From Gimesia aquarii (GTDB lineage: Bacteria > Planctomycetota > Planctomycetia > Planctomycetales > Planctomycetaceae), in contig NZ_CP037920.1 of the NCBI RefSeq assembly GCF_007748195.1, forward strand, positions 2,047,501-2,111,500: a stretch of DNA of 64,000 nt, read 5' to 3'. The translations under genes and the position numbers were made by a program. The notes under the pieces are model-generated. The model made no database searches, had not been told where the DNA came from, and saw only the letters and a program-made list of their open reading frames with translations. Positions 27,045 to 54,659 of the stretch are shown here, in pieces. Position 1 is the first letter of the stretch. Each line of letters opens with the position of its first letter.

Positions 27045-27077
27045 AATGACTGAGTATCTCTTATTTACCAGACCATT
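27045..27077. repeat. Border palindrome P1 (degenerate)
   Basis: Left arm AATGACTGAGTAT, right arm TTACCAGACCATT, centre 7 bases. Divergent first member of the palindrome family. Confidence 0.6.
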
Positions 27078-27215
27078 TTCTGGGACTTTAGATTTCAATT
27101 TCGGCAAAGGAACGTCACTCTGCCCCTCGTCTCGATCATGGTCGGATTGCCAGAAGATCAACATTCGCTGTCATTCCAGTCTTCCCTGAATAAACCTGAA
27201 GCGGATACATACCAT

Positions 27216-27283
27216 CAATTGATAATAGACAGAATTCTTGATAGATATAGACAGAATCAAATTCTGTCTATCAATAGTTAGGC
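27216..27283 (+). repeat. Repeated leader element, copy 2
   Basis: CAATTGATAATAGACAGAAT, then an inverted pair GACAGAAT/ATTCTGTC, ending in GTTAGGC, which matches the integron core site GTTRRRY. It lies 23 bases before the RusA-like gene. Confidence 0.7.
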
Positions 27284-27305
27284 CTCAAATATACGAGTAG
27301 CAAAT

Positions 27306-27986
27306 ATGTCGGATAATGGTGAGCCACTTATCGAAGCTCTTGAAGAAGCAGACGCGGGTGTCGCTCCATCACCATTCGGTGAGTTGTCTGTCAAGATCCC
27401 CGGCGCACCGGCATCCATTCAATCCAAAAAAGCCCAGCGAAACGCCTACATCGCACAAATCAAAACCGAGCTGTCAAAGTTTCAGTTCATTTTAACGGGA
27501 CAGATAATTCTCGAGATCACATGGAACGTTCCAGCGAAGAGTCGCTACGAGACCGACGCCAAAGCAGACATTGACAACTGTCTGAAACCAATCATTGACG
27601 CGTTCACTGGGCCTGATGGAATCATGATCGACGATTGCCAGCTTAAGGGGCTTTATATCTCTTGGACCCACATCAATTCAGGAGATGAGTATTTGCATTT
27701 CCAATTCAAGTTTGATTCGGACCACTATTGTGAGCGAGATGATTTGGTATTCATTCGCCTCGAAAAGGGCCTGCGTTGTCCAGTGAACACCAATTGGCCC
27801 AAAGAGCTGAAAACTATTTGGGTTAAAGCGATCCAAGCAGGTGAAGACCTCAAAGCGATTCTTGAGAATGAAAATGTATCTTACTTGACGCTTGCCTCGA
27901 TGACTGGTGGAGCACAACCGTTTCACGCAACGAGAACAGTTGGCTTTAGAGACTTGTCACCTGAAGAGTTTGCTGGCGAAACATAA
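27306..27986 (+). CDS. RusA-like Holliday-junction endonuclease
   Basis: A 226-residue protein whose residues 28-140 match RusA (PF05866). Signature residues are Asp88, Asp90-Asn91, Lys94, Asp98 and the Asp109-Asp110 pair in MIDDCQ, so the metal site is intact. RusA cuts four-way junctions and often occurs in prophages. An extra 85-residue C-terminal part is unassigned, so this is longer than E. coli RusA (120 residues). It is a single-gene cassette between P1 and P2, its stop overlapping an attC-like site. Confidence 0.8.
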   Translation: MSDNGEPLIEALEEADAGVAPSPFGELSVKIPGAPASIQSKKAQRNAYIAQIKTELSKFQFILTGQIILEITWNVPAKSRYETDAKADIDNCLKPIIDAFTGPDGIMIDDCQLKGLYISWTHINSGDEYLHFQFKFDSDHYCERDDLVFIRLEKGLRCPVNTNWPKELKTIWVKAIQAGEDLKAILENENVSYLTLASMTGGAQPFHATRTVGFRDLSPEEFAGET

Positions 27987-28048
27987 CAACAGGTCGAACT
28001 GGAGAGACCGTTCACGCGAAATATGAAATCACATTCGTTGGCTGTTAC
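27984..28048 (+). repeat. Integron attC-like sequence, copy b
   Basis: Begins with TAACAACAGGTCGAAC at the stop codon of the RusA-like gene and ends GGCTGTTAC. Outer TAACA/TGTTA pair like copy a, with shared GTCGAAC. Confidence 0.45.
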
Positions 28049-28073
28049 CCGATCAACCTAAAATTTACTTTTA

Positions 28074-28144
28074 CCCTCGTTCGATAAAATCAAACGTTTT
28101 CTCAATTGCGTTTTTAAACCGTTTTAAAAGACACCCTCTAAAAT
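28074..28144 (+). repeat. Cassette-border block, copy 2
   Basis: Shares CCCTCGTTCGATA and TTTTAAAAGACACCCTCTAA with 26983-27044, and again leads into a palindrome. Confidence 0.75.
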
Positions 28145-28176
28145 AGTGACCGGGTAACTCATATTACCTGGACATT
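28145..28176. repeat. Border palindrome P2
   Basis: Arms AGTGACCGGGTAA and TTACCTGGACATT around CTCATA. 13-6-13 layout. Confidence 0.85.
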
Positions 28177-28219: not shown

Positions 28220-28855
28220 TTATCTGGAATTAATACCATCCTGTTCGACCCAAATTTCAGGAATTGGATGTTCTATAAGAACAGTTGTATTGTCATGGCT
28301 GATTCTATCAACAAACAACGATTTCCACCAATCGCCATTAGGCGGGGGTTGCTCAAGGTATTCTTGCATCTTTGCATCAACGTAGGAATTACTATCGAGA
28401 TCTCTCTGCCCAGCCTCGTAGGCCCATTTTTCGCGCAAGGAAGGCGGACATGCTCCAGATTCAATTATTCTCTCCCATACCCATGCGTCAATTATCGCCA
28501 GTACTTTATCGGAAGGCACGTTGAGTACCCATTCGACTTTAGTGTCATTCGGTATTTTTATATGTTCATTCGACTGTGAGTAACACCAGATAATCTGATC
28601 CGTACCGACATGGCCGGCAAGTTTATCGTACGCGGGCGGAAGCGTGGGCATACTTTGATAGAACTTTGATTGCGAATGGTCAACTCGGCCGGAAGTAAGT
28701 AAAAAGTCAGGTTTGTGCCAAGTCCAAAGCTTCACTGCGTGCTCCTGGTTCACGAACAGAGAGTCGTGATTATGTGAGAAATTCGAATACTTCAAATAGC
28801 TGGATGTTCTGCTGGAATTCTTTTTATTCACCAGCATTTTGTCGGGGAAATTCAC
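28220..28855 (-). CDS. Unknown cargo protein
   Basis: A 211-residue soluble protein I cannot place. It contains VKLWTWHKPDFLLTSG near residue 40 and GTDQIIWCYSQ near residue 85, followed by a Trp-rich helical half. This vaguely recalls DUF3841-type proteins but the match is not secure. It fills the P2-P3 cassette alone, pointing left. The stop codon TAA is followed by CAATG, an attC-like start. Confidence 0.6.
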   Translation of the reverse strand: MNFPDKMLVNKKNSSRTSSYLKYSNFSHNHDSLFVNQEHAVKLWTWHKPDFLLTSGRVDHSQSKFYQSMPTLPPAYDKLAGHVGTDQIIWCYSQSNEHIKIPNDTKVEWVLNVPSDKVLAIIDAWVWERIIESGACPPSLREKWAYEAGQRDLDSNSYVDAKMQEYLEQPPPNGDWWKSLFVDRISHDNTTVLIEHPIPEIWVEQDGINSR

Positions 28856-28877: not shown

Positions 28878-28909
28878 AATGCCTGGGTAACACACATTAC
28901 CCGGTCATT
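28878..28909. repeat. Border palindrome P3
   Basis: Arms AATGCCTGGGTAA and TTACCCGGTCATT around CACACA. An extra arm, GTTTACCAGGCAT at 28856-28868, can pair with the left arm instead, giving alternative hairpins. Confidence 0.85.
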
Positions 28910-29280: not shown

Positions 29281-30102
29281 ATGACTACGAAAGCTAGGGA
29301 TTACAAGCTCACAACAGTCAAGAGGCTTCATACTCTTTCTGGTAATCAATGCTCAGCACCAGACTGCGATCGTAAGTTACTCGCAAGAGATGATGAAACT
29401 ATGGTTAGCAAGATTTGCCACATAGAGGCGGCGTCAAAGAATGGTCCAAGATGGAACCCAACCATGAACGACGATCAGCGCAGGCATTTTGATAATCTCA
29501 TTTTATTGTGTGACGAGTGTCACAACATAATTGACAATATAGAAAACGAAAAAAAGTATCCCGTTGATCTACTAAAAAATTGGAAAAAAGAGCATGAGTC
29601 AACAGTAACTTATTCTTATCTTAACGAACGCCCCGCTTTATTAAATATAGTAATCAACGCTATTTCTAAAATTGAGTTAGATGCAGAAGAGGACCTTTCT
29701 TTCCAAAATGTCGAAGCGTTCGAAATTGAATCAAAAATCAACCATAATGATATCAAACGTAATAAAGCACTTCTTGAAGAGTACAAAGTGTTCTACATGA
29801 AAATAAATTCTTTGTATCAAACTTTAGAAGAGGAAGGATCATTCAAGAAGGAAAATCTCTTGCGTAATATTAGAGCGACATATCTAAGGATAAAGGGAAA
29901 ATACATTGAAAACAGTTCTGATCCTATGCAAATAATTAGAAACAATGCAGATAATATTATTGAAGATGTTCAAGACGAATTAATTACTATGGCTGAACAA
30001 AATACTAATGACAATAAAGAGGATATTGCATTCGGTGTGACTATAATAATGGTGGATGCATTTATGCGATGTAAGATACTAGAGGAACCAGTCATATCAT
30101 GA
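29281..30102 (+). CDS. ABC-3C system effector with HNH nuclease domain
   Basis: A 273-residue protein. The N-terminal HNH domain shows Cys24-x4-Cys29, His47 (CHIEAAS), NGPR, Asn72 (FDNLILLC) and Cys77-x2-Cys80-His81, so zinc and catalytic residues are present. The C-terminal part is the helical domain found in ABC-three-component effectors. It starts the operon; its stop overlaps the next gene by 4 bases. It is expected to cut nucleic acid when the ATPase partner senses infection, as proposed for ABC-3C systems by comparative genomics. That function is inferred. Confidence 0.75.
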   Translation: MTTKARDYKLTTVKRLHTLSGNQCSAPDCDRKLLARDDETMVSKICHIEAASKNGPRWNPTMNDDQRRHFDNLILLCDECHNIIDNIENEKKYPVDLLKNWKKEHESTVTYSYLNERPALLNIVINAISKIELDAEEDLSFQNVEAFEIESKINHNDIKRNKALLEEYKVFYMKINSLYQTLEEEGSFKKENLLRNIRATYLRIKGKYIENSSDPMQIIRNNADNIIEDVQDELITMAEQNTNDNKEDIAFGVTIIMVDAFMRCKILEEPVIS

Positions 30103-30329
30103 TCATTAGCAAGGACATAAAACCAGAAAGGCAAATCTACCGCTTGGGAGCTATGCTTTTAGAAGTATTGCAAGGAACGTCTGGTAGTGTCATTGAGTTG
30201 TTTGATTTGTATCAACTCGTGAATCGCCAAGAAACCATTTCTCTAAATGCTTTTTTTATTACAGTTGACTGGCTCTTCCTTCTTGGTGCAATAACCAATG
30301 ATAAAGGACGTATTGTAAAATGTTTCTGA
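30099..30329 (+). CDS. ABC-3C system middle component
   Basis: A 76-residue protein with a small winged-helix-like layout (GAMLLEVLQ, FDLYQLV, FFITVDWLFLLGAI). Length, motif and position between an HNH effector and a DUF2326 ATPase fit the middle component of ABC-3C systems. It overlaps both neighbours (4 and 10 bases), showing coupled translation. Confidence 0.7.
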   Translation: MIISKDIKPERQIYRLGAMLLEVLQGTSGSVIELFDLYQLVNRQETISLNAFFITVDWLFLLGAITNDKGRIVKCF

Positions 30330-32029
30330 AGAAACTCACAATCCATAATGAGTCTACAATTATCAGAGACATCCCATTCCACAAGGGACTGAATCTTATC
30401 GTTGATGAGACCCAAACCAGTGATCGAAAAGAGTCAGGAAATAGTGTAGGCAAAACAACGGTATTGAGACTTATTGACTACTGTTTCGGAAGTAGTGGAA
30501 GCAATATCTATAAAGACCCAGAATTTAAAGGTAAGACAAATTCTCAAGTTGAAGAATTCCTAAAGAAAAACAACATCATTATTTCGATGACACTGAAGGA
30601 AGACTTAGAACTTACAGATTCACTTGAAATAGAAATTCGAAGAAATTTTCTTAGTAAAAAAGAGAAGATTTTCGAAATCAATGGTGAACAACAAACAATC
30701 GAGAATTTCCCAAAGAAATTAAAAGAACTTATTTTTAAATCACCACTAGCAAAGCCTACCTTCAGGCAAATAATTGCAAAGAATATAAGGGACGAAAAAA
30801 ACAGGATTACCAATACACTGAAGGTTTTGAACTCTTTCGCAACGAAAGAGGAATATGAATCGCTCTTCTTGTTTTGGTTGGGAATCGAGCTTGATACAAA
30901 TGAACGAAAACAGCAACTAGTCCGTGACCAAAAAACAGAAAATAATTTACTACAACGGCTAAAAAAAGAGGCTTCTTTATCTCAAATTGAACAGTCCCTT
31001 ATTGTTATTAATAGAACTATCGAGGAATTGACTCTGAGAAAGAATAGCTTTGTCGTTAATGAGAGTTACGAGGAAGATCTAGAAGAACTAAACAAAATAA
31101 AATTGCAAATTAATGAACGATCTACAGCAATAAGTTCCCTGGTGTTACGTAGAGATTTGATACTGGAAAGCAAAACTGAACTCGAGAATGAAGTAAGTTC
31201 CGTCGATGATCAGCAAATTAAATCTCTTTACCAAGAAGCCAAAGTTTTAATTCCTGAGCTCCAAAAAACATTTGAAGATACCATAAGATTTCATAACCAA
31301 ATGATTTTGCATAAGGTGGAATACATCGCTAAAGAAATCCCTGATCTTGAAGAAAAGCTTGCTGAGAGAAAAAGAGAGATGTCAGAACTATTGGTTCTAG
31401 AAAAAAAGTTAGCACAAAAATTAAAAAAGGCAGGAGCTGTAGAGGAATTGCAAAAAGTGGTTTCTGATCTGAATAACACATTTGAGAAAAAAGGAAGCCT
31501 AGAAGAACAAAAACGACTATGGGAATTGTCCATAGAGAAACTCGATAACATTGAAAAAGAATTAAACAAAATTAACGCTGGAATTGATTCGAAAGATGAT
31601 CAGATACAGAAGAGAATTGCTGAATTTAACAAATATTTTTCTGAGTTGTCTAATAGGCTATACGGTGAACAATTTGTCTTGAGCTCAGATGATAAAGATA
31701 AAGATAAAAACGTATATGAATTCAAGGTAAGCAGTCTCAGTGGAAATCTAGGGACTGGTAAGAAAAAAGGCCAAATTGCTGCCTTTGACTTGGCTTATAT
31801 TCAGTTTGCAGACGCTGAAGGTATTGAGTGTCTACATTTTGTTCTTCAAGATCAGATTGAAAATATCCATGACAATCAGATTAGTAGTATCCTTACTGAA
31901 ATAGTTGCTGAAGTTAATTGCCAGTACATATTACCTGTTCTTAAAGATAAGCTTCCAGTTGAAATAGACATCGACCAATATCAGGTATTATCACTGTCCC
32001 AATCAGATAAATTATTTCGAATCCCTTAA
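30320..32029 (+). CDS. ABC-3C system SMC-like ATPase (DUF2326 type)
   Basis: A 569-residue ATPase. The Walker A loop GNSVGKTT is at residues 40-47, a long coiled coil spans about 200-470, and the C-terminal half ATPase carries GTGKKKGQIAAFDLAYIQF and FVLQDQIENI, in the positions of the signature and Walker B motifs. This is the RecN/SMC-like ATPase of ABC-3C systems. It would gate the HNH effector. The gene lies last in a tight three-gene operon. Confidence 0.8.
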   Translation: MFLKKLTIHNESTIIRDIPFHKGLNLIVDETQTSDRKESGNSVGKTTVLRLIDYCFGSSGSNIYKDPEFKGKTNSQVEEFLKKNNIIISMTLKEDLELTDSLEIEIRRNFLSKKEKIFEINGEQQTIENFPKKLKELIFKSPLAKPTFRQIIAKNIRDEKNRITNTLKVLNSFATKEEYESLFLFWLGIELDTNERKQQLVRDQKTENNLLQRLKKEASLSQIEQSLIVINRTIEELTLRKNSFVVNESYEEDLEELNKIKLQINERSTAISSLVLRRDLILESKTELENEVSSVDDQQIKSLYQEAKVLIPELQKTFEDTIRFHNQMILHKVEYIAKEIPDLEEKLAERKREMSELLVLEKKLAQKLKKAGAVEELQKVVSDLNNTFEKKGSLEEQKRLWELSIEKLDNIEKELNKINAGIDSKDDQIQKRIAEFNKYFSELSNRLYGEQFVLSSDDKDKDKNVYEFKVSSLSGNLGTGKKKGQIAAFDLAYIQFADAEGIECLHFVLQDQIENIHDNQISSILTEIVAEVNCQYILPVLKDKLPVEIDIDQYQVLSLSQSDKLFRIP

Positions 32030-32071
32030 GTGATGTTGATGGTATTTCCTTCAATAGACTCTATTGCAATG

Positions 32072-32109
32072 TAACCGGGCGGTCCGCGGATCCGGGGAAC
32101 GGATTGTTA
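32072..32109 (-). repeat. Integron attC-like hairpin between convergent genes
   Basis: On the minus strand it starts TAACAATCCG next to the stop codon and ends CGGTTA, with internal CCCCGGATCCGCGG hairpin. It separates the ABC-3C ATPase gene from the convergent nuclease-like gene. Confidence 0.45.
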
Positions 32110-32952
32110 TCAAGCTTTTTGCTCGACGATCAAATGTTCCTTGTATGCCTGTTGTTGAGCATCAACTTCATCAGTTAGCTGCTCAACCGTTTCCTTGGCG
32201 GCTGAAATAAAGCGAGGTAGAGCCGGGAGAGTCACAATGCGAACCGACACATATTCATCAGCCCGGTTCAGGAAGGGATATTTGAAGTTAATAATGCCTT
32301 CTTCGGTCTCGATGATTTCAAGATCACCAGATTCGTTCAACGAAGCCTCAAACAACTTCCCATCCAGTATTATGACGGGTTGCGTCATGCTTCCGAACAG
32401 GACCTTGTCTGCGTACCGCGAGGACCAAACCTTCTGCTCTGTTAACCGCGCAAGTCCGTGTGATGCCTTCACACAACTCATTAGCGCCTTATAAGGGATG
32501 TCACCAGTTTTTGGCGATCCCTTTCTCAGTGCCTCAGTGACACCGTACGCCCAGTTGCCGCTCCAATTATGTAATTTGTTGTCTGATAGATTGCGATACT
32601 TCAATCTTTCCTTGACTGTCGAACCGATTTTTGAACAAACCCAACCGTTACGAAAAACGCTGCCGAAAGAGCGTCCCGGTTTAACAAAAAGAACCCAGGG
32701 TGAGCTAGATTTTTTGCACTCTATCGCAAACTCTACTGAGAACATGAAATAATCCGCGAACTCACCGTCTTGACATCCTGCGACAATGTCGATTTCGCGC
32801 GGTGTGTCGTTTTCAGGATCACGGTAATAGACTGACAGCGAAATGGAAACACCAGCGTCGATAAACGCTTTCGCAACCCGCATCTCCAGGGGATAGCCCT
32901 GTTGCTCTAGCCATTCCAATATTTTCTTGTCAAGTGGTTTCTCGGTAGTCAA
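32110..32952 (-). CDS. PD-(D/E)XK nuclease-like cargo protein
   Basis: A 280-residue protein. Residues 20-85 show an alpha-beta core with Glu23, Glu53-x-Asp55 (REIDIVAGC) and Glu78-x-Lys80 (FAIECKKS), the D...ExK pattern of restriction-like nucleases. The C-terminal 150 residues are unassigned. Orientation is opposite to the ABC-3C operon. It could be a stand-alone restriction or anti-phage nuclease; no methylase accompanies it. Confidence 0.65.
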   Translation of the reverse strand: MTTEKPLDKKILEWLEQQGYPLEMRVAKAFIDAGVSISLSVYYRDPENDTPREIDIVAGCQDGEFADYFMFSVEFAIECKKSSSPWVLFVKPGRSFGSVFRNGWVCSKIGSTVKERLKYRNLSDNKLHNWSGNWAYGVTEALRKGSPKTGDIPYKALMSCVKASHGLARLTEQKVWSSRYADKVLFGSMTQPVIILDGKLFEASLNESGDLEIIETEEGIINFKYPFLNRADEYVSVRIVTLPALPRFISAAKETVEQLTDEVDAQQQAYKEHLIVEQKA

Positions 32953-33193: not shown

Positions 33194-33225
33194 AATGACC
33201 GGGTAAACATCGTTTCCCAGTCATT
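33194..33225. repeat. Border palindrome P5
   Basis: Arms AATGACCGGGTAA and TTTCCCAGTCATT around ACATCG. 13-6-13 layout. Confidence 0.87.
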
Positions 33226-33288: not shown

Positions 33289-33906
33289 TCAAGATGTAAC
33301 CGGACCACCAGTCTGGTGTATTAAGTTGTTAGCCGACTCACTGGGCTCACATACCAAGAGGCATCCGTCTCGCGTGCCAGTAACACACAACGCTGTACCC
33401 TGTGAAATCATCATGCCAGAGGCGGACATGGCGTCCAATTGCAGGCCATCAATTTCGACCGTGCCCTGGGGACGCAGAGATGACTTAGCAATGGTAGTTC
33501 TGCCAACATATTGATTGAGTGGGTCAACAGTCTGAGTTGATTGTTCGAGCGGGACTGGAGGGGTAAGGACAGCCTCGGGAAATCCTAAGACGTATTCTTT
33601 GATGAGGTATCCCAGCCCAATAAAAGGGATGCCCAGAACGCCGAGCATCTCTCCGGAGGAAACCCCGAGTACCAGTGCAGCGACAATGGTTGCAACGAGC
33701 CAAAGTGCAATGTCAAAGGCATAGCAAATCAGTACTAGCGAGAGTACGACGATGGCCAATCGAAAAACAGCACGTTGGGTTGTCTCACGAGTTTTTTTGA
33801 CTTCCTGCTGGTCCGATTTGTGAACCCAGTTCAATATGCAAAATAGAGTCACACCATAGGAAAACGCAGCAAGTGGTATGTCAATCCATGGTGAGAAACT
33901 ATACAT
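33289..33906 (-). CDS. NfeD-like membrane protein
   Basis: A 205-residue protein with three to four membrane helices in residues 8-110 and a C-terminal OB-fold (YVGRTTIAKSSLRPQGTVEI to about residue 190) typical of the NfeD C-terminal domain. The family partners with flotillin or stomatin-type proteins in membrane quality control. No protease domain or flotillin gene is nearby. It is the only gene of the P5-P6 cassette, which is unusual for a housekeeping family. Confidence 0.7.
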   Translation of the reverse strand: MYSFSPWIDIPLAAFSYGVTLFCILNWVHKSDQQEVKKTRETTQRAVFRLAIVVLSLVLICYAFDIALWLVATIVAALVLGVSSGEMLGVLGIPFIGLGYLIKEYVLGFPEAVLTPPVPLEQSTQTVDPLNQYVGRTTIAKSSLRPQGTVEIDGLQLDAMSASGMMISQGTALCVTGTRDGCLLVCEPSESANNLIHQTGGPVTS

Positions 33907-34100
33907 GATTTTGAAAACAATCCTGTCGAATAACTTGTTCTTTACTTATGCATAGCTGTGGATGACTTACCAAAGGGCCCCATATCAGCAAATTTATGCT
34001 ACCATGTAAAAGATCACCATTCAAGAAATAGGGTCTTATGATTATTGGGATGGGCAACATCATTTACCAGATTATCAAAAATTGATCCCTCAAAAGAAAA

Positions 34101-34136
34101 GAGTACGGGTAATATCCGTTACCCGGACAAATACTC
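34101..34136. repeat. Border palindrome P6
   Basis: Inner arms ACGGGTAA and TTACCCGG around TATCCG, with an extra outer pair GAGTA/TACTC. It lies only 20 bases from P7, so two borders abut. Confidence 0.75.
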
Positions 34137-34188: not shown

Positions 34189-34193
34189 AACAG

Positions 34194-36965: not shown

Positions 36966-36985
36966 CTTTGAGGGCGTTTACCAAG

Positions 36986-46624: not shown

Positions 46625-49510
46625 ATGTCACCGAAGCAGCTTTTTTATTCCTATTCTCACAAGGATGAAAATCTACGTGAAGAACTGGAAGAACATTTGA
46701 GCCTCTTGAGAAATCAAGAAATCATTAGCGAATGGCACGATCGAAAAATTATCGCTGGAGAGGAATGGGCTGATGAAATTGATCAGAATTTGAAGAATGC
46801 AGATATCATTCTGCTACTGATCAGTTCCAGCTTTAATGATTCCGATTACTGCTACAAAAAAGAAATGAAACTTGCGTTGGAGTTGCATGACTCGGGACAA
46901 GCTGTTGTTATCCCCGTCATCTTGAGAGATTGCGATTGGGATTCTGCTCCCTATGGAAAGCTTCAGGCACTACCCAAAGATGGGAATGCAGTTACAGGTT
47001 CTTACTGGCATAGTACCGACAAAGCTTTTAAAGATGTTGCCAATGGAATTCGTAAAGCTACTCAAAAAAAAACGACAGTAAAAACTAAGATATTTGATGT
47101 CCCATTTAATGAAAATCCGGCTTTTACAGGTCGTGAAAACGAACTGAAAAATCTTCGTTCTCGCCTCACTTCCGGTGGTCGAACTGCTCTGACTCAAGCT
47201 ATCCGCGGATTAGGGGGTATTGGGAAAACACAAATTGCCGTCCAATATGCTTATCAATATCAGGCAGAATATGAATTTGTTTTCTGGGTCCAGTTGACCG
47301 ATGAGGAAAAAAGGGAACAGACTGATCCCTTACTTCTGCTGTTAAATAGCTATGTCGGTTATTGTGAAAAATTAAGTATCCCCTTCGATCAAACCGAAGC
47401 TGAGACGGCGATACCAGCTTTTAAGAATTGGCTGGAACAGCATCATAACTGGTTACTGATTTTTGATAACGCAGATCAACCGAACTCCTTAGAAAGATTC
47501 TTACCACTCCAAAGTCAGGGGCATATTCTATTGACCTCTCGGGCAAGTGTGTTCGACACACTGCAAATCCTAGAACCAATCGAAGTCGACAAACTACCTC
47601 TGGATCAAGCGACCGCTTTCTTAATCAAACGAGTGGCACGTGAGTTGAATGAATCAGAACAGACATTCGTGCGAGAACTAGCGGAGGAACTCGATAGATT
47701 ACCTTTGGCCTTAGAGCAAGCCGGTGCCTACCTTCATAGAAAGAAAGCCTCTACTTTCGAAAACTATCTGCGTCGCTATCGCGAGTCAAAATTGACTCAT
47801 TTAAAACAGCAGGGACCGGTTCTCGGCCAATATTCGAAATCCCTCGAAAAGACTTGGCTAATCAATTTTCAGGAAATAGAAGAAAAGGAGGAATCACAGG
47901 CTTCCGCTGATGTACTTCGTTTTTGTGCATTCCTTGCCCCTGATTCCATACCCATAGAATTAATCAGACAAGGGGCACACTATCTGAATGCATCCATTCA
48001 GCGTTTTATTGAAGAGACTGGCAATGATGTGTCAGATCTACTTGAGCCATTATTGAATTACTCTCTGATTCAGATGGTGCCTGGGAAGAACGAATTCAGT
48101 ATTCACCGTCTTGTCCAGGAAGTGATGAAGTCAAGGGTCGACTCACAAGATGAGCAATCGATCTGGCAGGAACGCGTAGTGAACTGTGTCAATAAAATCT
48201 ATCCCTGGCCTAAGCATGGTAATTGGCAAGTTTGCCGAAGTCTTGCACCACAATGTATGGTCGCCAACGATTACATTAACCAGTTTAAGATAGAAACAGA
48301 AAATAGTAGATCATTGTTAGGCAAACAAGCCAATTATTTTTATCAGGTCGGTGAATACGAAGAGGCTGAACCACTCTATTTGCAGGCAATGGAAATTAGT
48401 CGTACGGTCCTGGGGGAAAACCATCCGGACTTTGCAACAAGCCTCAACAACCTGGCTAGTTTGTATACAAGCCAGGGGCGTTACGAAGAGGCCGAACCAC
48501 TCTATTTGCAGGCAAAGGAAATTCGTCGTACGGTCCTGGGGGAAAACCATCCCTCTTTTGCAACAAGCCTCAACAACCTGGCTTTTTTGTATGAAAACCA
48601 GGGGCGTTACGAAGAGGCCGAACCACTCTATCAACAGGCAAAGGAAATTCGTCGTACGGTCCTGGGGGAAAACCATCCCTCTTTTGCAACAAACCTCAAC
48701 AACCTGGCTGGTTTGTATCAAAACCAGGGGCGTTACGAAGAGGCCGAACCACTCCATCAACAGGCAATGGAAATTCGTCGTACGGTCCTGGGGGAAAACC
48801 ATCCGGACTTTGCAACAAGCCTCAACAACCTGGCTGAACTATATAGAAGCCAGGGGTGTTACGAAGAGGCGGAACCACTCTTTCTAAAGGATATGGAAAT
48901 TCGTCGTACGGTCCTGGGGGAAAACCATCCGGACTTTGCAACAAGCCTCAACAACCTGGCTGTTTTGTATAAAAGCCAGGGGCGTTACGAAGAGGCGGAA
49001 CCACTCCATCAACAGGCAATGGAAATTCGTCGTACGGTCCTGGGGGAAAACCATCCGGACTTTGCAACAAGCCTCAACAACCTGGCTATTTTGTATGAAA
49101 ACCAGGGGCGTTACGAAGAGGCGGAACCACTCCATCAACAGGCAATGGAAATTCGTCCTACGGTCCTGGGGGAAAACCATCCGGACTTTGCAACAAGCCT
49201 CAACGACCTGGCTGGTTTGTATCAAAACCAGGGGCGTTACGAAGAGGCCGAACCACTCCATCTAAAAGCAATGGAAATTCGTCGTACGGTCCTGGGGGAA
49301 AACCATCCGGACTTTGCAACAAGCCTCAACAACCTGGCTGGTTTGTATGAAAACCAGGGGCGTTACGAAGAGGCGGAAACACTCTATCTAAAGGCAATGG
49401 AAATTTTTACTTCGACACTTGGATCGGAACATCCCAAAACGAAAACTGTTAGGAAAAATTACCAGCATTGTAAAGACGCAAAAGATGGGAGAAATGAGGA
49501 TACACAATGA
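46625..49510 (+). CDS. TIR-NB-ARC-TPR protein (bacterial NLR-like)
   Basis: A 961-residue protein. Residues 5-125 form a TIR domain (FYSYSHKDE...LRDCDW) with Glu80 in the NADase position (SDYCYKKE). Residues 165-420 form an NB-ARC ATPase with Walker A GLGGIGKT ending near residue 202, LLIFDNAD and LTSRAS. A winged-helix region follows, then nine 42-residue TPR units. The architecture is that of plant-type immune receptors: repeats sense, NB-ARC oligomerises, TIR depletes NAD. Function is inferred from architecture. Single-gene cassette P15-P16. Confidence 0.88.
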   Translation: MSPKQLFYSYSHKDENLREELEEHLSLLRNQEIISEWHDRKIIAGEEWADEIDQNLKNADIILLLISSSFNDSDYCYKKEMKLALELHDSGQAVVIPVILRDCDWDSAPYGKLQALPKDGNAVTGSYWHSTDKAFKDVANGIRKATQKKTTVKTKIFDVPFNENPAFTGRENELKNLRSRLTSGGRTALTQAIRGLGGIGKTQIAVQYAYQYQAEYEFVFWVQLTDEEKREQTDPLLLLLNSYVGYCEKLSIPFDQTEAETAIPAFKNWLEQHHNWLLIFDNADQPNSLERFLPLQSQGHILLTSRASVFDTLQILEPIEVDKLPLDQATAFLIKRVARELNESEQTFVRELAEELDRLPLALEQAGAYLHRKKASTFENYLRRYRESKLTHLKQQGPVLGQYSKSLEKTWLINFQEIEEKEESQASADVLRFCAFLAPDSIPIELIRQGAHYLNASIQRFIEETGNDVSDLLEPLLNYSLIQMVPGKNEFSIHRLVQEVMKSRVDSQDEQSIWQERVVNCVNKIYPWPKHGNWQVCRSLAPQCMVANDYINQFKIETENSRSLLGKQANYFYQVGEYEEAEPLYLQAMEISRTVLGENHPDFATSLNNLASLYTSQGRYEEAEPLYLQAKEIRRTVLGENHPSFATSLNNLAFLYENQGRYEEAEPLYQQAKEIRRTVLGENHPSFATNLNNLAGLYQNQGRYEEAEPLHQQAMEIRRTVLGENHPDFATSLNNLAELYRSQGCYEEAEPLFLKDMEIRRTVLGENHPDFATSLNNLAVLYKSQGRYEEAEPLHQQAMEIRRTVLGENHPDFATSLNNLAILYENQGRYEEAEPLHQQAMEIRPTVLGENHPDFATSLNDLAGLYQNQGRYEEAEPLHLKAMEIRRTVLGENHPDFATSLNNLAGLYENQGRYEEAETLYLKAMEIFTSTLGSEHPKTKTVRKNYQHCKDAKDGRNEDTQ
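48350..49483 (+). repeat. Nine 126-bp TPR-coding repeats
   Basis: Each unit encodes GRYEEAEPL...RTVLGENHPDFAT and differs at few codons (for example LYLQ, LHQQ, LFLK). DNA identity between units is very high. Confidence 0.9.
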
Positions 49511-49540
49511 TGTCTTGGTAACTTATGTTACCCGAACATT
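49510..49540. repeat. Border palindrome P16
   Basis: Arms ATGTCTTGGTAA and TTACCCGAACAT around CTTATG. Confidence 0.83.
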
Positions 49541-49562: not shown

Positions 49563-49594
49563 AATGACCGGGTAATAGAAGTTACCCGGTCATT
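49563..49594. repeat. Border palindrome P17 (perfect)
   Basis: Perfect 13-bp arms AATGACCGGGTAA and TTACCCGGTCATT around TAGAAG. The best match to consensus, 23 bases after P16. Confidence 0.92.
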
Positions 49595-49681: not shown

Positions 49682-52600
49682 ATGAATTCCACAAAACCAC
49701 TCATTCCGGTATTAAAAACAAACTTTGATTTACAAAGGGTTTTAAAACAAGCACATGCTGAAGAATGGAATGAGCTTTCTCTTATAAACAATAATTTAGC
49801 CATTTCTAATCGCGTGTTCGATCAACAAATCATAGATTACTTAAATATTGCAGAACGATGCTTTCGAATTAGTTCTCCTCTATCATTTGGGAACTTTAAT
49901 GTAATCAAAAATCTGAAAACACTAAGTTTATTTTTTTTTCAAATCGGAGCTGAGGGGGCACAGACAATCGCCCAACTTCAGAATCTCACCTCGCTCAATC
50001 TTATCGAGAACCAGATCGGAGATGAGGGGGCACAGGCGATCGCCCAACTTCAGAATCTCACCTCGCTCAATCTTACCGGGAACCAGATCGGAGATGAGGG
50101 GGCACAGGCGATCGCCCAACTTCAGAATCTCACCTCGCTCAATCTTACCGGGAACCAGATCGGAGATGAGGGGGCACAGGCGATCGCCCAACTTCAGAAT
50201 CTCACCTCGCTCAATCTTAACCGGAACGAGATCGGAGATGAGGGGGCACAGGCGATCGCACAACTTCAGAATCTCACCTCGCTCAATCTTGACTGGAACG
50301 AGATCGGAGATGAGGGGGCACAGGCGATCGCCCAACTTCAGAATCTCACCTCGCTCAATCTTGACCGGAACCAGATCGGAGTTGAGGGGGCACAGGCGAT
50401 CGCCCAACTTCAGAATCTCACCTCGCTCGATCTTTATAGGAACCAGATCGGGGATGAGGGGGCACAGGCGATCGCCCAACTTCAGAATCTCACCTCGCTC
50501 AATCTTGACGGGAACCAGATCGGGGATGAGGGGGCACAGGCGATCGCCCAACTTCAGAATCTCACCTCGCTCAATCTTCACTGGAACCAGATCGGAGCTG
50601 AGGGGGCACAGGCGATCGCCCAACTTCAGAATCTCACCTCGCTCAATCTTGACTGGAACCAGATCGGAGCTGAGGGGGCACAGGCGATCGCCCAACTTCA
50701 GAATCTCACCTCGCTCAATCTTGACCGGAACCAGATCGGAGTTGAGGGGGCACAGGCGATCGCCCAACTTCAGAATCTCACCTCGCTCAATCTTACCGGG
50801 AACCAGATCGGAGCTGAGGGGGTACAGGCGATCGCCCAACTTCAGAATCTCACCTCGCTCAATCTTGACGGGAACGAGATCGGAGATGAGGGGGCACAGG
50901 CGATCGCCCAACTTCAGAATCTCACCTCGCTCAAACTTCACTGGAACCAGATCGGAGATGAGGGGGCACAGGCGATCGCCCAACTTCAGAATCTCACCTC
51001 GCTCAATCTTGACTGGAACGAGATCGGAGATGAGGGGGCACAGGCGATCGCCCAACTTCAGAATCTCACCTCGCTCGATCTTGACGGGAACCAGATCGGA
51101 GATGAGGGGGCACAGGCGATCGCCCAACTTCAGAATCTTACCTCGCTCAATCTTCACGGGAACCAGATCGGAGACGAGGGGGCAAAAACTTTATTAGAAT
51201 TATTATGTAGTTTATCTCGGAAAATTTCCATAACATACTTGAATCTAAAAAACAATAACATATCAGGACTTATGCTTCTCAAAGAAGTCCTAGATACAAC
51301 AGACGCACAATCAATACTTGCTGCATATCGTCGATTTACTGATTCAGAAAAACAACAAAATAACGAACCACTAAACGAAGCGAAATTACTTGTGGTAGGC
51401 CATGAGGATGTAGGAAAGACATCCCTAATTAAGTTTCTTGCCAAAGGTGAAACTTGTGATCCTCAAGAAAAAAAAACCGTTGGTGTTGATATCAGAGAAA
51501 AAATTGAAACGCATACTTGGGCCCCAGAAAATACTAACATCATACTAAATATTTGGGACTTTGGCGGCCAATTAATGATGCATCAAACGCATCGTTTTTT
51601 TTTCACTGAAAGGAGTCTCTATTTAATTGTGTTGAGTGATCGGACTGAAGATGAGAAGAAGTCTGCACATTCATGGTTAAGAACAATTCAGTCTCACGGA
51701 AGAGAATCACCAGTTATTATAGTGATCAATAAGTCTGATGAAGGTAAACAGAGTTTACAACTCAATGAAGTAGGATTGAAGAAAGACTATCCAAATATTA
51801 TCTGTTTTCATCGCACATCCTGCACAAAAGGTGAATTTGCAAAACAGAGTATTGATAGTTTGAAAATAATAATTTCAACTGCACTTTTCAATGAAGAACA
51901 GTTGAAAGAGATCCATGATCCAATCCCAAATTCTTGGAAAAGAGTGAAAAATTCATTAGAAGATCAGTCGGCACAAAATAATGTCTTGAAGCACTCTGAT
52001 TTTATTAAATTATGTGAGATCCCAGACTCGAATGAGACAATTGAATTAATTGATAATCCAGATGAACAACGAGCCTTACTTAGGCTATTAAATAAACTAG
52101 GTGTCATTGTATCACATGGGCTCGACAATAACTCTCCAGCAGCTTTTAAGGAAATTGTTTTACTGAACCCGAATTGGATCACTGACGCAATTTACAAATT
52201 GCTAAATAGTCAACTAATCAGTCACCAAAATGGAGAATTTTCGAGACAGCAGATGGCTAAGATCCTGGACGGCACGATCTACCCGAAGGAAACTTATGAG
52301 TACATCTTAAGTATGATGGAATCTGATGAAATTGGGCTCTGTTTCGAAATCCCGAATAGCAATCATGAGAAATATCTAATTCCCGAAGCTCTTACTCCTA
52401 ACGAACCTGAATATCAATATTTTTTTTCTGATTCGTTAAGGTTTCGGTTCAGTTATGACTTTTTACCAACTGGCTTGATTCCTCGATTCATTGTGAACTC
52501 TTTTGGTAATTTAACGGCTAAAAAAACTCTTTGGAGAACAGGTTGTTTGCTAGAAGCTGCTTCTTGTCCGATCGTAGTCAAGGGAAATAACGATAAGAAT

Positions 52601-53410
52601 GTCGTTGATATTTTTGTTAGTGGAAAAGCTCAATACCGAAGATCTGCGCTTAGTATTATTATCAATACTCTAGAAATTGTTCATACACTTTTCCCAGAGG
52701 CGGGTGCAGAAGCACGCGTCCCCATGCCAAGCCTACCAGAGGTCGATGTCGGATATAACCATCTACTTAAATTAGAATCGAAATATGGTCCGGAACATGA
52801 GTTTGAACCAGAGGACGCTGATCGACTCTATACAGTTAAAGAATTGCTGGATGGAATTCGTTTTGACAACTCGATATCTACAGAAAAATCGAGAGAAAAA
52901 AACTATTCTCTCGATGGACTGAGTTCTATTCACATGGGTGATTACTCACAGATCAATATCGGTGAAAGCCGGCAGAATCAAATTAATTCAGTTCAAAATC
53001 ATCAATCACCAAACAAATCATTTAAATCTACCGTCATCTCGTGGCCATATATATCAATAGCTGCTGGCATCATCACCAGTATTTTTATTCTAATTATGAT
53101 TTTGCTCCCTTCAAATGCATGGCGTGCTTATTTAGGTTTACCTATTGGTGGAGGAATGCTAGTTGCAATTTGGACATTTTTTCGAGATCCAAAATATTAC
53201 TATCGTCGTTTGCTGAGCTATATTATTTCGTTCGGATTGGCAGTGATAGCGACTGGTGTTTCGTTTGATGCATATTTTAGAACTGATACTAGCCAAGGAG
53301 GAATCAGATGGGATGGTTCAATCAGTTTTGGATTTTATTTTGTCTGGGCAATCTGCATCACAGTATTTGTAGTTGCAGATTTTTTGACAAATAATAGGCA
53401 AGATTCATGA
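49682..53410 (+). CDS. LRR-Roc-COR (ROCO) protein with C-terminal membrane domain
   Basis: A 1242-residue protein. About 95 N-terminal residues are followed by 17 leucine-rich repeats of 24 residues (100-507), a Roc GTPase (Walker A GHEDVGKTS near 573-581, DFGGQ near 625, NKSD near 685), the COR dimerisation domain (about 750-1010) and four membrane helices from about residue 1119. Bacterial ROCO proteins are GTP-regulated dimers. Repeats plus a membrane module suggest a sensor that acts at the membrane, in line with the neighbouring NLR-like genes. Single-gene cassette P17-P18. Confidence 0.85.
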   Translation: MNSTKPLIPVLKTNFDLQRVLKQAHAEEWNELSLINNNLAISNRVFDQQIIDYLNIAERCFRISSPLSFGNFNVIKNLKTLSLFFFQIGAEGAQTIAQLQNLTSLNLIENQIGDEGAQAIAQLQNLTSLNLTGNQIGDEGAQAIAQLQNLTSLNLTGNQIGDEGAQAIAQLQNLTSLNLNRNEIGDEGAQAIAQLQNLTSLNLDWNEIGDEGAQAIAQLQNLTSLNLDRNQIGVEGAQAIAQLQNLTSLDLYRNQIGDEGAQAIAQLQNLTSLNLDGNQIGDEGAQAIAQLQNLTSLNLHWNQIGAEGAQAIAQLQNLTSLNLDWNQIGAEGAQAIAQLQNLTSLNLDRNQIGVEGAQAIAQLQNLTSLNLTGNQIGAEGVQAIAQLQNLTSLNLDGNEIGDEGAQAIAQLQNLTSLKLHWNQIGDEGAQAIAQLQNLTSLNLDWNEIGDEGAQAIAQLQNLTSLDLDGNQIGDEGAQAIAQLQNLTSLNLHGNQIGDEGAKTLLELLCSLSRKISITYLNLKNNNISGLMLLKEVLDTTDAQSILAAYRRFTDSEKQQNNEPLNEAKLLVVGHEDVGKTSLIKFLAKGETCDPQEKKTVGVDIREKIETHTWAPENTNIILNIWDFGGQLMMHQTHRFFFTERSLYLIVLSDRTEDEKKSAHSWLRTIQSHGRESPVIIVINKSDEGKQSLQLNEVGLKKDYPNIICFHRTSCTKGEFAKQSIDSLKIIISTALFNEEQLKEIHDPIPNSWKRVKNSLEDQSAQNNVLKHSDFIKLCEIPDSNETIELIDNPDEQRALLRLLNKLGVIVSHGLDNNSPAAFKEIVLLNPNWITDAIYKLLNSQLISHQNGEFSRQQMAKILDGTIYPKETYEYILSMMESDEIGLCFEIPNSNHEKYLIPEALTPNEPEYQYFFSDSLRFRFSYDFLPTGLIPRFIVNSFGNLTAKKTLWRTGCLLEAASCPIVVKGNNDKNVVDIFVSGKAQYRRSALSIIINTLEIVHTLFPEAGAEARVPMPSLPEVDVGYNHLLKLESKYGPEHEFEPEDADRLYTVKELLDGIRFDNSISTEKSREKNYSLDGLSSIHMGDYSQINIGESRQNQINSVQNHQSPNKSFKSTVISWPYISIAAGIITSIFILIMILLPSNAWRAYLGLPIGGGMLVAIWTFFRDPKYYYRRLLSYIISFGLAVIATGVSFDAYFRTDTSQGGIRWDGSISFGFYFVWAICITVFVVADFLTNNRQDS
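49979..51202 (+). repeat. Seventeen 72-bp LRR-coding repeats
   Basis: Units encode NLTSLNLxxNQIGDEGAQAIAQ-type repeats. Nearly all variation falls in the two codons before the Asn (TG, DW, DR, HW, NR, YR, DG, HG, IE), the D/A/V before EG and N/K/D in LxL. Other bases, including silent sites, are almost frozen. Confidence 0.93.
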
Positions 53411-53440
53411 TGACCGGATAATAAGCGTTACCCAGTCTTC
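53408..53440. repeat. Border palindrome P18
   Basis: Arms GATGACCGGATAA and TTACCCAGTCTTC around TAAGCG, the same centre as P8. Confidence 0.78.
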
Positions 53441-53552
53441 TTTCATTAATCTCACAAAAGAAGAGATCCGTAAACGAAAACTTACCAGATATTTTTTACT
53501 GAATCACACCACGGTACGGAATTCTTAGATTATCTATCACTTCTAAACCACA

Positions 53553-53737
53553 TTACATGAACTGGAGTCGTCTCTCCTTTGCATTTGCTTCTATAGCTTT
53601 AAGATGATCAGAAACACCATTCGAAGAATTAATTCCAAATCTACTTTCAATTTTTCTTACTTTGAGAACATAGCCAATCTTGGTAATGAATTCACGAATG
53701 TAACTTAGGATTCGCTGTTGTCTTTAAGTTAATTTTT
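53553..53737 (-). pseudogene. LexA-type winged-helix domain fragment
   Basis: Minus-strand translation gives QQRILSYIREFITKIGYV, then KVRKIESRFGINSSNGVSDH and LKAIEANAKERRLQF before a stop: the LexA N-terminal DNA-binding domain. An in-frame TAA interrupts the expected start (KLT-stop-RQQR), no start codon is in frame, and the protease half is absent. Confidence 0.65.
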
Positions 53738-54034
53738 CATGAGTAAGCTAAGTGTTTCTAGTCAGAGACAAGAACTCAGATGATCGTCATACCAAAGACA
53801 AAAAGTAGTGGTTGGATAAATGCAAAGTTTTTCCATAATTTGAAAGGATAATAAGTACACAATGACTAGACAACTTTTGTTATTTGAAAAAACTAATGAA
53901 TATTATTTATCAGATTCCATAAACATGTATATTATTTTTTATTGGCTAAATGTTTACATGTGGTATTATGAAATTCGTCCATTATTGTTAAGTAAATGTT
54001 TAGAATTAGTAAATATGATTGAGGGGAGAAACAA
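53738..54034. other. Intergenic, no gene seen
   Basis: About 300 strongly A+T-rich bases upstream of the charged protein gene; probably its promoter. Confidence 0.4.
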
Positions 54035-54580
54035 ATGAATGATCAAAAGTTAACATCGAACGAAATAATTGCATCATTAAAAGAATTGACAGATAGAATA
54101 CAAGATGTTGAAGATGAGCTTTTTCCTGAAATTTCAGAAGACGAATACATCGAAAATTGGACATATAATAACGAAGTGTTTAAAGAACCTTCAAACTTTT
54201 TGGAACGGGACGATGACAGACCTCACCCAGGAGAACTACCTCACGAGAGAAGGGAGGAAGAAGAAAGAGAAGCGAGAAGGAAAGAAAGAATAAAAGAGAT
54301 CGAACGAAGAAAGGAGCACGAAAGAAAACTAAATACATGTATCAAGCTTAAATTACGAAAAATAAAGCGTAATAAAAAAGCTTCAAGAGGAGTGAAAAAT
54401 GTTGATAAGAAAAAAACTGCAGATAAAGCTCTCAAAAAAATGAAAAAAAATCCAAACATGAAAAAAGGGCGAATCATGGCTCCGAAAATTAAAGAAATAG
54501 AAGATGATTGTAAGGTTCGACTAATCATTTCTTGGAAGGATGATTTTGAGTTCAGATTTGAATTAGAGTGTGTATTTTAG
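54035..54580 (+). CDS. Highly charged coiled-coil protein
   Basis: A 181-residue protein. The acidic N-terminal 50 residues precede a Glu/Arg/Lys-rich helix (70-110) and a very basic segment (110-150), then a short beta end (VRLIISWKDDFEFRFEL). GAGGGGAG precedes the ATG. No family; it may bind nucleic acid. Last gene of the palindrome-bordered array. Confidence 0.6.
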   Translation: MNDQKLTSNEIIASLKELTDRIQDVEDELFPEISEDEYIENWTYNNEVFKEPSNFLERDDDRPHPGELPHERREEEEREARRKERIKEIERRKEHERKLNTCIKLKLRKIKRNKKASRGVKNVDKKKTADKALKKMKKNPNMKKGRIMAPKIKEIEDDCKVRLIISWKDDFEFRFELECVF

Positions 54581-54624
54581 TTGTAACAGTTAAGACTTAA
54601 TCTGGCTTCCTTTCTAAAATTAAA

Positions 54625-54659
54625 AATGATGGGTGGTAAACAACCTTTTCCCACCCACT
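54625..54659. repeat. Border palindrome P19 (degenerate, last copy)
   Basis: Arms TGATGGGTGGTAA and TTTTCCCACCCAC around ACAACC. It marks the right edge of the cargo, just before the replication genes. Confidence 0.65.

What the first reader, a model, noticed from the sequence alone, without database searches (positions are those of the whole stretch)
27045..54659. Array of 32-bp palindromes with variable 6-bp centres bordering cargo cassettes
About 18 copies of a palindrome with 13-bp arms (consensus AATGACCGGGTAA and its mirror) and a variable 6-bp centre separate nearly all cargo units: 27045, 28145, 28878, 33194, 34101, 34157, 34832, 35439, 36986, 37710, 39564, 39619, 43176, 46431, 49510, 49563, 53408, 54625. 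None was seen outside the cargo. Each interval holds one gene or one operon in either orientation. Arms conserved to TAA/TTA at the inner edge with a variable hexamer is the geometry of Xer/dif and lox-type sites, and the layout recalls pdif modules of Acinetobacter plasmids. I infer a recombination-driven defence cassette system in a planctomycete.
Basis: partly seen in the sequence, partly recalled or inferred. Interest (0 to 1): 0.93.

Follow-up and report, generated by a model that had tools for sequence, protein, structure and literature searches.

The report
Palindrome-bounded gene cassettes in phage satellites
In one group of planctomycete bacteria, virus-like DNA elements carry rows of interchangeable genes, several of them likely anti-virus defence genes, bordered by 32-letter palindromes at which the genes appear to be cut and joined, much as in an integron but at a different kind of site.

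Summary
The palindromes are real: 15 match the 13-6-13 consensus, 27045 and 54628 are degenerate or variant, 39619 is a half site. They lie in a 39.5-kb element (18936-58416) at a tRNA-Arg gene with 42-bp att repeats, integrase, small terminase and Mu-Gam; no capsid or large-terminase relatives were found, so it looks like a phage satellite or defective prophage. The own genome has 116 sites in the ten regions read, 100 inside five such elements; the motif is nearly confined to one genus. Decisive test: cassettes shared between elements or species often stop being alike at the palindromes. Of match ends at >=90% identity, 18 of 40 lie at a site in both partners; shifted controls 1.9%. Inner arm and, in the closest pairs, hexamer stay with the cassette; the outer arm is near background. 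Cassettes occur in both orientations. This supports crossover at the palindrome centre, as by a tyrosine recombinase. No dedicated recombinase was found; arms do not match host dif; integron integrase and attC are absent. It works like integrons or dif modules but meets neither definition.

The parts
18904..18977 (+). tRNA-Arg (CCT), integration target; attL = 18936-18977
   Evidence: ARAGORN; Rfam; 42-bp exact repeat
58375..58416 (.). attR, 42-bp exact copy of 18936-18977; right end of the element
19009..20187 (-). element integrase (tyrosine recombinase, 392 aa)
   Evidence: PF00589 (27.4 bits, just over the cut-off); PHROG integrase
21696..22346 (-). terminase small subunit-like protein
   Evidence: 97% identical to the I7 homologue that matches PHROG terminase small subunit
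22395..23057 (-). Mu Gam-like end-protection protein
   Evidence: 95% identical to the I7 homologue that matches PF07352 and PHROG Gam
23035..24228 (-). three small genes of the right module (two lipoprotein-like, one membrane protein; labels by eye)
   Evidence: each family occurs in 7 of 17 islands; the 86-aa one and the I7 homologue of the 191-aa one have no PHROG match and no Pfam match over cut-off; the 103-aa one was not scanned
27045..27076 (.). degenerate palindrome, centre CTCTTA
27306..27986 (+). RusA-type endonuclease gene in the first interval
   Evidence: PF05866 over cut-off
28145..28176 (.). palindrome, centre CTCATA
28220..28855 (-). cassette gene, 211 aa, no family match
28878..28909 (.). 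palindrome, centre CACACA
29281..32952 (.). cassette: ABC-3C CTD10 protein and DUF2326 protein (PDC-M68A/B-like), plus a 280-aa gene on the - strand without family match
33194..33225 (.). palindrome, centre ACATCG
33289..33906 (-). cassette gene with weak NfeD-like C-terminus
   Evidence: just below curated cut-off
34100..34131 (.). palindrome of a close pair, centre TATCCG
34157..34188 (.). palindrome of a close pair, centre ACATCA
34194..34607 (-). 137-aa cassette gene; whole cassette 98.9% identical to an inverted copy at 278326-279035 of the same genome
34832..34863 (.). palindrome, centre TAAGCG
34930..35280 (-). cassette gene, 116 aa, no Pfam match
35440..35471 (.). palindrome of the GGTAAA subtype, centre TGCGTA
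35576..37048 (.). cassette holding a partial copy of the right module (104-aa protein, Gam fragment, truncated small terminase running into the site); 98.4% identical to a copy in I9
36986..37017 (.). palindrome, centre CCGTAA
37201..37617 (+). cassette gene, 138 aa, no Pfam match
37710..37741 (.). palindrome, centre CGCTTA
38010..39263 (-). cassette gene, 417 aa, no Pfam or PADLOC match
39564..39595 (.). palindrome with GGGGAAA/TTTCCCC inner arms, centre CCCTAG
39619..39636 (.). half site, cut off by unrelated DNA
40031..43004 (+). cassette operon: 98-aa ORF, HTH/peptidase M78 protein (PD-Lambda-2_B-like), 184-aa protein, Mrr-like nuclease
43176..43207 (.). palindrome, centre TTATTG
43223..46258 (-). 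cassette gene: TPR protein with STAND/AAA-type NTPase region, 1011 aa
   Evidence: NTPase models below curated cut-off; no PADLOC match
46432..46463 (.). palindrome, centre TAGCAG
46625..49510 (+). cassette gene: TIR-NB-ARC-TPR, 961 aa; homologous gene inverted in prophage I4
49509..49540 (.). palindrome of a close pair, centre CTTATG
49563..49594 (.). perfect palindrome (13 of 13 pairs), centre TAGAAG
49682..53410 (+). cassette gene: LRR-Roc-COR GTPase, 1242 aa
53409..53440 (.). palindrome, centre TAAGCG
54035..54580 (+). last cassette gene, 181 aa, no Pfam match
54628..54659 (.). variant palindrome of the CCCACCC subtype, centre CAACCT
   Evidence: the same centre (as AGGTTG) occurs near the start of three other arrays, I1 275627, I4 1156064, I7 4390709
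54850..57536 (-). possible replication module of this element: IstB/AAA-like ATPase (weak, below cut-off) and two genes without Pfam match

Best explanation
The palindromes are recombination sites that turn the variable zone of a family of phages and phage satellites into an array of exchangeable gene cassettes. Each site is two inverted 13-bp half sites around a 6-bp centre. A recombinase of the tyrosine type binds the two half sites and exchanges strands at the centre, so a cassette leaves with its inner half site and (in recent events) its hexamer, and gains a new outer half site. Near-symmetric arms let a cassette sit in either orientation. The elements integrate at tRNA genes with integrases of at least three types in this genome, so the array enzyme is probably another protein (element-borne, helper-phage or host). 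SHOWN: the elements, the sites, mostly one-gene intervals, breakpoints at sites, inverted copies, shared cassettes between elements and between species. INFERRED: the enzyme class, the overlap rule, that the cargo is selected as anti-phage defence, and that elements without capsid genes are helper-packaged satellites.
For: Breakpoints: of merged matches >=250 bp within arrays, 27 of 82 ends (>=80% identity) and 18 of 40 ends (>=90%) lie within 20 bp of a site centre in both partners; shifted controls 1.15% and 1.9%. Base-level junctions: I1/window 98.9% identical and inverted; G16b/G16c 99.5% and inverted; G16c/I2 95.6% and G05a/G16a 94.4% between species. In 28 junction pairs (one flank >=53 of 60 identical, other <=14 of 30), excess identity over background is 0.66 in the inner arm, 0.62 in the hexamer, 0.21 in the outer arm. 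In the 12 closest pairs (>=58 of 60) the hexamer is identical in 8, differs by one base in 3 and is inverted in 1; the inner arm is 13 of 13 in 11. Hexamers recur between unrelated sites: 304 of 29,210 pairs against 70 (sd 10, maximum 109 of 300 runs) after column shuffling. One site, G16c 5297401, joins two cassettes that each carry the same hexamer elsewhere. Arms behave largely as independent half sites: pairing exceeds all 500 shuffles only at 3 of 13 positions, and is high but within range at 2 more. Sites occur in convergent (59), divergent (34) and tandem (123) gene gaps.
Against: No recombinase specific to the arrays was found: the tyrosine recombinases near arrays are of several types and fit chromosomal integration, and a 20-site array (G13b, 3.61-3.62 Mb) has no PF00589 match nearer than 0.22 Mb. 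22 of 40 ends of >=90% matches do not lie at a site in both partners. Neighbouring sites have different centres in 180 of 181 pairs 250-8000 bp apart (about what the 1.0% background predicts), so one-site insertion of a circle, which would leave equal centres, does not explain the arrays. Among the other 16 of the 28 junction pairs only 4 have the same hexamer and some are replaced outright (ACACCG/CGAACA with 57 of 60 flanking bases identical). Of 8 sites with partners on both sides only 1 agrees on both. The step at the hexamer edge is noisy by position, pairs are not independent, hexamer recurrence could also be plain inheritance, and no excision circle or live rearrangement was seen.
Confidence: 0.6

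Rival explanations
1. The palindromes are conserved boundary elements (terminator or regulatory stem-loops) and cassettes are shuffled by ordinary phage-type homologous recombination or annealing over these short repeats, as proposed for PeSL elements of T4-like phages.
For: Sites sit between genes. 31 of 216 have a T-rich run beside the stem against 2.6% of random positions. A chromosomal solo site conserved between two species lies just after a gene and looks like a terminator. The elements carry a Mu Gam-like protein. Stretches next to sites are themselves shared by otherwise unlike cassettes. Some arm covariation exists.
Against: Only 14% have the T-run; 34 of 216 sites lie in divergent gaps where no terminator is needed; at 8 of 13 positions arms pair about as shuffled. 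In 11 of the 12 closest junction pairs inner arm (>=11 of 13) and hexamer (>=5 of 6) both follow the cassette, where an even spread of crossovers over 32 bp would leave about 41% (the expectation is mine). Two unrelated sites share only 9.5 of 13 bases per arm.
Confidence: 0.25
2. Host XerC/XerD act on the sites, that is, these are true dif modules with diverged arms.
For: Two Xer-like recombinases (by score and size) occur in the own genome and in 12 of 12 same-genus genomes searched. TAA-N6-TTA core as in dif. Reaction rules in Acinetobacter dif modules (identical or nearly identical 6-bp spacers) resemble the hexamer behaviour here (PMC13141974, passages read).
Against: Host dif halves do not fit the cassette half-site matrix: 35% of random TTA-plus-10-mers score as well as the XerC half, 87% as well as the XerD half; with one extra base put into the XerC half 1.1%. 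Symmetric arms have no separate XerD half. Genomes with both recombinases and dif can lack arrays: G001 has no site hit, G007 two strand hits, that is one or two sites.
Confidence: 0.12
3. The sites recombine as folded single strands, attC-like, during phage or satellite replication.
For: Inverted repeats with a 6-nt loop; pairing above all shuffles at positions 5, 10, 11; a gene family with weak similarity to replication initiators occurs in 7 of 17 islands.
Against: No integron integrase above cut-off in 17 genomes; GTTRRRY in 3 of 251 sites against 5.9% of nearby stretches; at 8 of 13 positions arms pair about as shuffled; cassettes occur in both orientations.
Confidence: 0.07

Closest known systems
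dif (pdif) modules of Acinetobacter plasmids
   Same: Small modules in either orientation, bounded by sites with a variable 6-bp spacer; crossover in the site; identical or nearly identical spacers used (PMC13141974, passages read).
   Different: [quoted passage not shown] here both halves are one motif, no XerD half exists, and arrays sit in chromosomally integrated phage-like elements, not plasmids.
Chromosomal integrons
   Same: Long arrays of mostly single-gene cassettes of accessory genes with a shared short recombination site. That Vibrio integrons carry defence cassettes is recalled; one search gave only a listing.
   Different: No integron integrase, no attC consensus, genes in both orientations, several arrays per genome inside mobile elements.
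PeSL promoter/stem-loop elements and boundary sequences of mosaic phages
   Same: Short stem-loop elements between phage genes tied to module shuffling (passages in PMC4503421; the primary papers were not read).
   Different: The present element has two long sequence-conserved arms, recurrent hexamers and breakpoints biased to the outer side of the hexamer. A PeSL promoter was not looked for.
Phage-inducible chromosomal islands and P4-like satellites with defence hotspots
   Same: tRNA-integrated elements with integrase, small terminase and a variable zone with defence genes; hotspots in P2/P4 (abstract start of PMC9122126).
   Different: Here the variable zone has its own repeated sites and spans about 25-30 kb in the four satellite-like elements, which are nearly as long (37.6-40.9 kb) as the related complete prophage (43.2 kb).

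Membership tests
Xer/dif, pdif modules | XerC half site plus distinct XerD half site (TTATGTTAAAT type) around 6 bp | tested here: not met
   Both halves are TTACCCGGTCATT-like; host dif halves score poorly on the matrix
Xer/dif, pdif modules | 6-bp spacer, TAA/TTA inner edges | tested here: met
   (main subtype; a GGTAAA subtype also exists)
Xer/dif, pdif modules | Alternating orientation of successive sites | tested here: inconclusive
   Symmetric arms give no direction; centres orient 174 of 244 distinct sites only by a rule built from the same bases
Xer/dif, pdif modules | Recombination depends on XerC/XerD | not testable with these tools
   needs bench work
Integron | IntI-type integrase | tested here: not met
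   TIGR02249: 0 of 1 (own) and 0 of 16 genomes over cut-off
Integron | attC with R box GTTRRRY (consensus recalled) | tested here: not met
   3 of 251 sites, 5.9% of random nearby stretches
Integron | Cassette genes in one orientation (recalled) | tested here: not met
   59 convergent, 34 divergent, 123 tandem gaps
Tyrosine-recombinase site (generic) | Inverted half sites about a 6-8 bp overlap, crossover confined to it (recalled) | tested here: inconclusive
   Geometry met; inner arm and hexamer follow the cassette in 11 of the 12 closest pairs, but hexamers are equal in only 4 of the 16 others
Tyrosine-recombinase site (generic) | Cognate recombinase gene | tested here: inconclusive
   10 PF00589 places in the own genome, none tied to all arrays
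Phage satellite (PICI-like) | Integrase, att repeats, packaging gene, no capsid or large terminase | tested here: met
   I1, I5, I7, I9: att repeats, integrase, small terminase; blastp of I4 large terminase, portal, protease, major head and a tail-like protein finds none in them, only I4 itself and, for large terminase, G09a. Distant forms could be missed.
Phage satellite (PICI-like) | Mobilised by a helper phage | not testable with these tools
   a related complete-looking prophage (I4) is in the same genome
Intrinsic terminators | Stem followed by T-run | tested here: not met
   31 of 216 sites (14%) only, though above the 2.6% of random positions

The most novel reading that the evidence does not exclude
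A third gene-cassette platform beside integrons and dif modules: temperate phages and full-length satellites of one planctomycete genus use a dedicated, still unidentified recombinase on symmetric 13-6-13 sites, with hexamers acting as address codes, to collect and swap defence genes; in satellites the array takes the place of the capsid genes so that the element keeps phage length.
Probability: 0.35. Interest if true: 0.93.

Novelty: new variant of a known kind. Interest (0 to 1): 0.82.

Why it matters
How defence genes get in and out of phage and satellite hotspots is an open question. Here the junctions are marked by a short, recognisable site, so gain, loss and inversion can be read from sequence and tested at the bench. 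If a dedicated recombinase exists it would be a new cassette tool with many possible 6-bp addresses.

Tried and rejected
Integron reading: integrase model and attC R box both fail. Host dif: located from a recalled canonical dif pattern, then compared; arms differ. Intrinsic terminators and operators as the whole story: T-run in only 14%, sites also in divergent and convergent gaps. Known RNA family: only the tRNA was found in 18000-60000 at gathering threshold. Serine recombinase: one PF00239 match in the genome, at 811 kb, not near an array. A single integrase type as array enzyme: types differ between elements. Virus collection: 16 viral contigs have an exact match to the core; with the looser score each has one site except one with two, and no relative of the small terminase or of the DUF4031 protein was found there (a method for close relatives). 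Genome collection: 105 stretches with the exact core; of the 80 rows shown, 79 have one site and one (a Spirochaetia record) two, spread over many phyla; apart from the Planctomycetaceae record identical to G005 they were not looked into and are read as chance; records near the own genome may be left out there. A lone palindrome in another genus of the family (G176) has no second site on its contig and no match to the islands. Papers: searches showed no description of this system in the held library, which misses subscription journals and preprints.
Full report
WHAT WAS CHECKED FIRST. The 18 listed places were read directly. Fifteen are 13-6-13 sites; 27045 and 54628 are a degenerate and a variant copy; 39619 is a half site cut off by other DNA. 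The window lies at 2047501-2111500 of a single 7.40-Mb contig. A pattern with up to 3 mismatches finds 67 sites in that genome and 0 read backwards. The covariance-model search of the genome scored only 150 candidates, so it is not a full census. A scored scan of ten regions of the own genome gives 116 sites; with 19 segments from ten other same-genus genomes (135 sites) there are 251 sites in 29 segments, and 0 for the reversed sequence in every segment. These segments were chosen because they held hits, so site density there says nothing about the rest of the genomes.

WHERE THEY SIT. 100 of the 116 own-genome sites are in five elements, each bounded by a direct repeat that covers a tRNA 3' part: I1 269903-310764 (79 bp, tRNA-Leu), I4 1150815-1194045 (49 bp, tRNA-Asp), I5 the window element 18936-58416 (42 bp, tRNA-Arg), I7 4384682-4423317 (57 bp, tRNA-Leu), I9 6810255-6847848 (61 bp, tRNA-Leu). 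Lengths are 40.9, 43.2, 39.5, 38.6 and 37.6 kb. I4 is a complete-looking prophage with large terminase, portal, head protease, major head and tail-like proteins and a short array of 6 sites (7.8 kb). The other four carry integrase and small terminase; blastp with five late proteins of I4 finds no relative in them (distant forms could be missed). Their arrays hold 26, 15, 27 and 26 sites over 25-30 kb. That these four are helper-packaged satellites is an inference. The other 16 sites: six just behind I9, next to an integrase fragment, and ten at 469, 973, 2490-2492, 6009 and 6995 kb.

HOW WIDE. With the covariance model, 15 of 17 same-genus genomes (own included) and 2 of 42 others, weakly, match at E 0.01; at E 1e-5, 11 of 17 same-genus genomes and 1 of 153 others in the order, that one a lone palindrome. 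The genus is unnamed in the tools; I think of Gimesia from recall only. One same-genus contig is identical to a record titled Planctomycetaceae bacterium.

CASSETTE LAYOUT. In 15 segments, 197 of 216 sites are intergenic where 26% of array DNA is, and 115 of 167 intervals over 250 bp hold one predicted gene (simple ORF caller). Window cargo includes a PDC-M68-like ABC-3C pair, a PD-Lambda-2-like operon, a TIR-NB-ARC-TPR protein, a STAND-like TPR protein and an LRR-Roc-COR protein; 6 of the 10 window proteins given to PADLOC match. Of 60 cargo proteins of at least 120 aa from I1, I4, I7 and I9, 65 PADLOC families are matched at E 1e-5, of which 25 were shown; these include PD-T4-6, IetA, mads6 and TIR/TPR families, most hitting one protein each. 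The output does not tell how many of the 60 have any match, so 'defence array' is shown for part of the cargo only.

THE DECISIVE TEST. If the palindromes are the exchange points, homologous cassettes in different places should stop being alike there. Often they do. After merging overlapping matches, 27 of 82 ends at >=80% identity and 18 of 40 at >=90% lie within 20 bp of a site centre in both partners; shifted controls give 1.15% and 1.9%. Both ends of a match do so in 7 of 41 and 5 of 20. A first, unmerged count was diluted by tandem-repeat genes (38 of 234 ends near a site in either partner against 5.1%). The remaining ends are not explained; many fall in repeat genes or partial module copies. 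The clearest whole cassettes: I1 278328-279035 with window 34157-34863, 98.9%, inverted; G16b 3651852 with G16c 5298116, 99.5%, inverted; G16c 5296628 with I2 469765, 95.6%, and G05a 2894 with G16a 3612408, 94.4%, both between species.

BASE-LEVEL JUNCTIONS. All site pairs were compared: 152 are alike on one side (>=24 of 30), and in 128 of these the other side is unrelated (<=15), in 22 it is also alike, in 2 between. In those 128 the inner arm averages 10.9 of 13, the hexamer 3.1 of 6 and the outer arm 9.8 of 13, with background 9.5, 1.9 and 9.5. In a stricter set of 28 pairs the excess identity over unrelated pairs is 0.66 for the inner arm, 0.62 for the hexamer and 0.21 for the outer arm. 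In the 12 closest pairs (>=58 of 60 flanking bases) the hexamer is equal in 8, one base off in 3, and reverse-complemented in 1 (G12a/G08a). In the other 16 it is equal in 4, one base off in 2, and in others replaced. So in the closest pairs the centre travels with the cassette, but it can be swapped over time. Pairs share members and are not independent.

HEXAMERS AND ARMS. Equal hexamers occur in 304 of 29,210 pairs of unrelated sites; shuffling columns gives 70 (sd 10, maximum 109 of 300 runs). This fits centres that must match to recombine, but also plain inheritance with cassette ends. Neighbouring sites share a centre in only 1 of 181 pairs, close to the 1.0% background. At G16c 5297401 two cassettes meet, and each carries TGTTCG at that end elsewhere; 7 other sites with partners on both sides do not agree on both, all disagreeing partners having at most 46 of 50 flanking bases alike. 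Arms pair with each other better than all 500 shuffles only at positions 5, 10 and 11 of 13, with 2 and 7 high but within range, which favours two protein-bound half sites over a strongly selected hairpin.

MECHANISM. I commit to site-specific recombination at the palindrome centre by a tyrosine-type recombinase (0.6). The enzyme is not identified. Integrases at array edges fall into several types, as expected for different integration targets. Xer-like recombinases and dif are present in the host, but dif arms differ from the cassette arms. The chief rival, homologous shuffling over conserved boundary stem-loops as suggested for PeSLs (passages only), keeps 0.25.

WHAT IS KNOWN. It works like dif modules, whose published reactions also use identical or nearly identical 6-bp spacers (PMC13141974, passages read), and like integrons in layout; it meets neither definition. 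Eight paper searches showed no description; this covers the held open library only. I rate it a new variant of a known kind, with a real chance of being a separate class.

Noticed in passing
window 39619-39660: Half site AATGACCGGGTAACGATG runs into GGGTCTGTTGCAAA, which looks like an insertion-sequence end (recalled); no second copy of that 14-mer on either strand of the window.
   Followed up: partly
34 short site-site intervals, e.g. window 34100/34157 and 49509/49563; I1 279004/279066: Close pairs of sites, mostly 51-66 bp centre to centre; some pair a main-type and a GGTAAA-type site around a conserved spacer such as TCACAGTGATCCCATAAAATGAA.
   Followed up: partly
23 site ends, e.g. I7 4390357, I4 1156064, window 33194: A shared leader (ATTTTTAATCA..TTAGAAAGG) follows the site and in many copies leads to a start codon some 30-40 bp on, often with the half-site variant TTACCCACCCATT.
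   Followed up: no
21 site ends, e.g. I3 972949, window 28145, I9 6843231: Another shared end, ATTTTAAAGGGTGTCTTTTAAAACGGT, next to sites of otherwise unlike cassettes; function unknown.
   Followed up: no
G12a 5420258 and G08a 6093: Same arms and same inner context, but the hexamer is reverse-complemented (CATCAT/ATGATG) between two species.
   Followed up: no
window 36695-37048: A truncated small-terminase-like gene runs into the site at 36986: a cassette made from phage module genes and cut at a palindrome.
   Followed up: partly
G002:C1:3575905 and G013:C1:2840802: A second dif-like site 14 kb and 8.7 kb from dif, suggesting an element integrated at dif.
   Followed up: no
L166 8149-8180 and the orthologous place in L173: Solo site in a conserved chromosomal place in two species, arms identical, centre different, just after a gene and next to a T-run: may act as a terminator.
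   Followed up: partly
I9 6847891-6848576: Integrase fragment 95% identical to the I9 integrase behind attR, followed by six more sites: perhaps a remnant of a second tandem element.
   Followed up: no
window 24396-24593: A 65-aa protein by the array edge, ribbon-helix-helix-like by eye, its family in 9 of 17 islands, no Pfam match; a candidate DNA-binding partner.
   Followed up: partly
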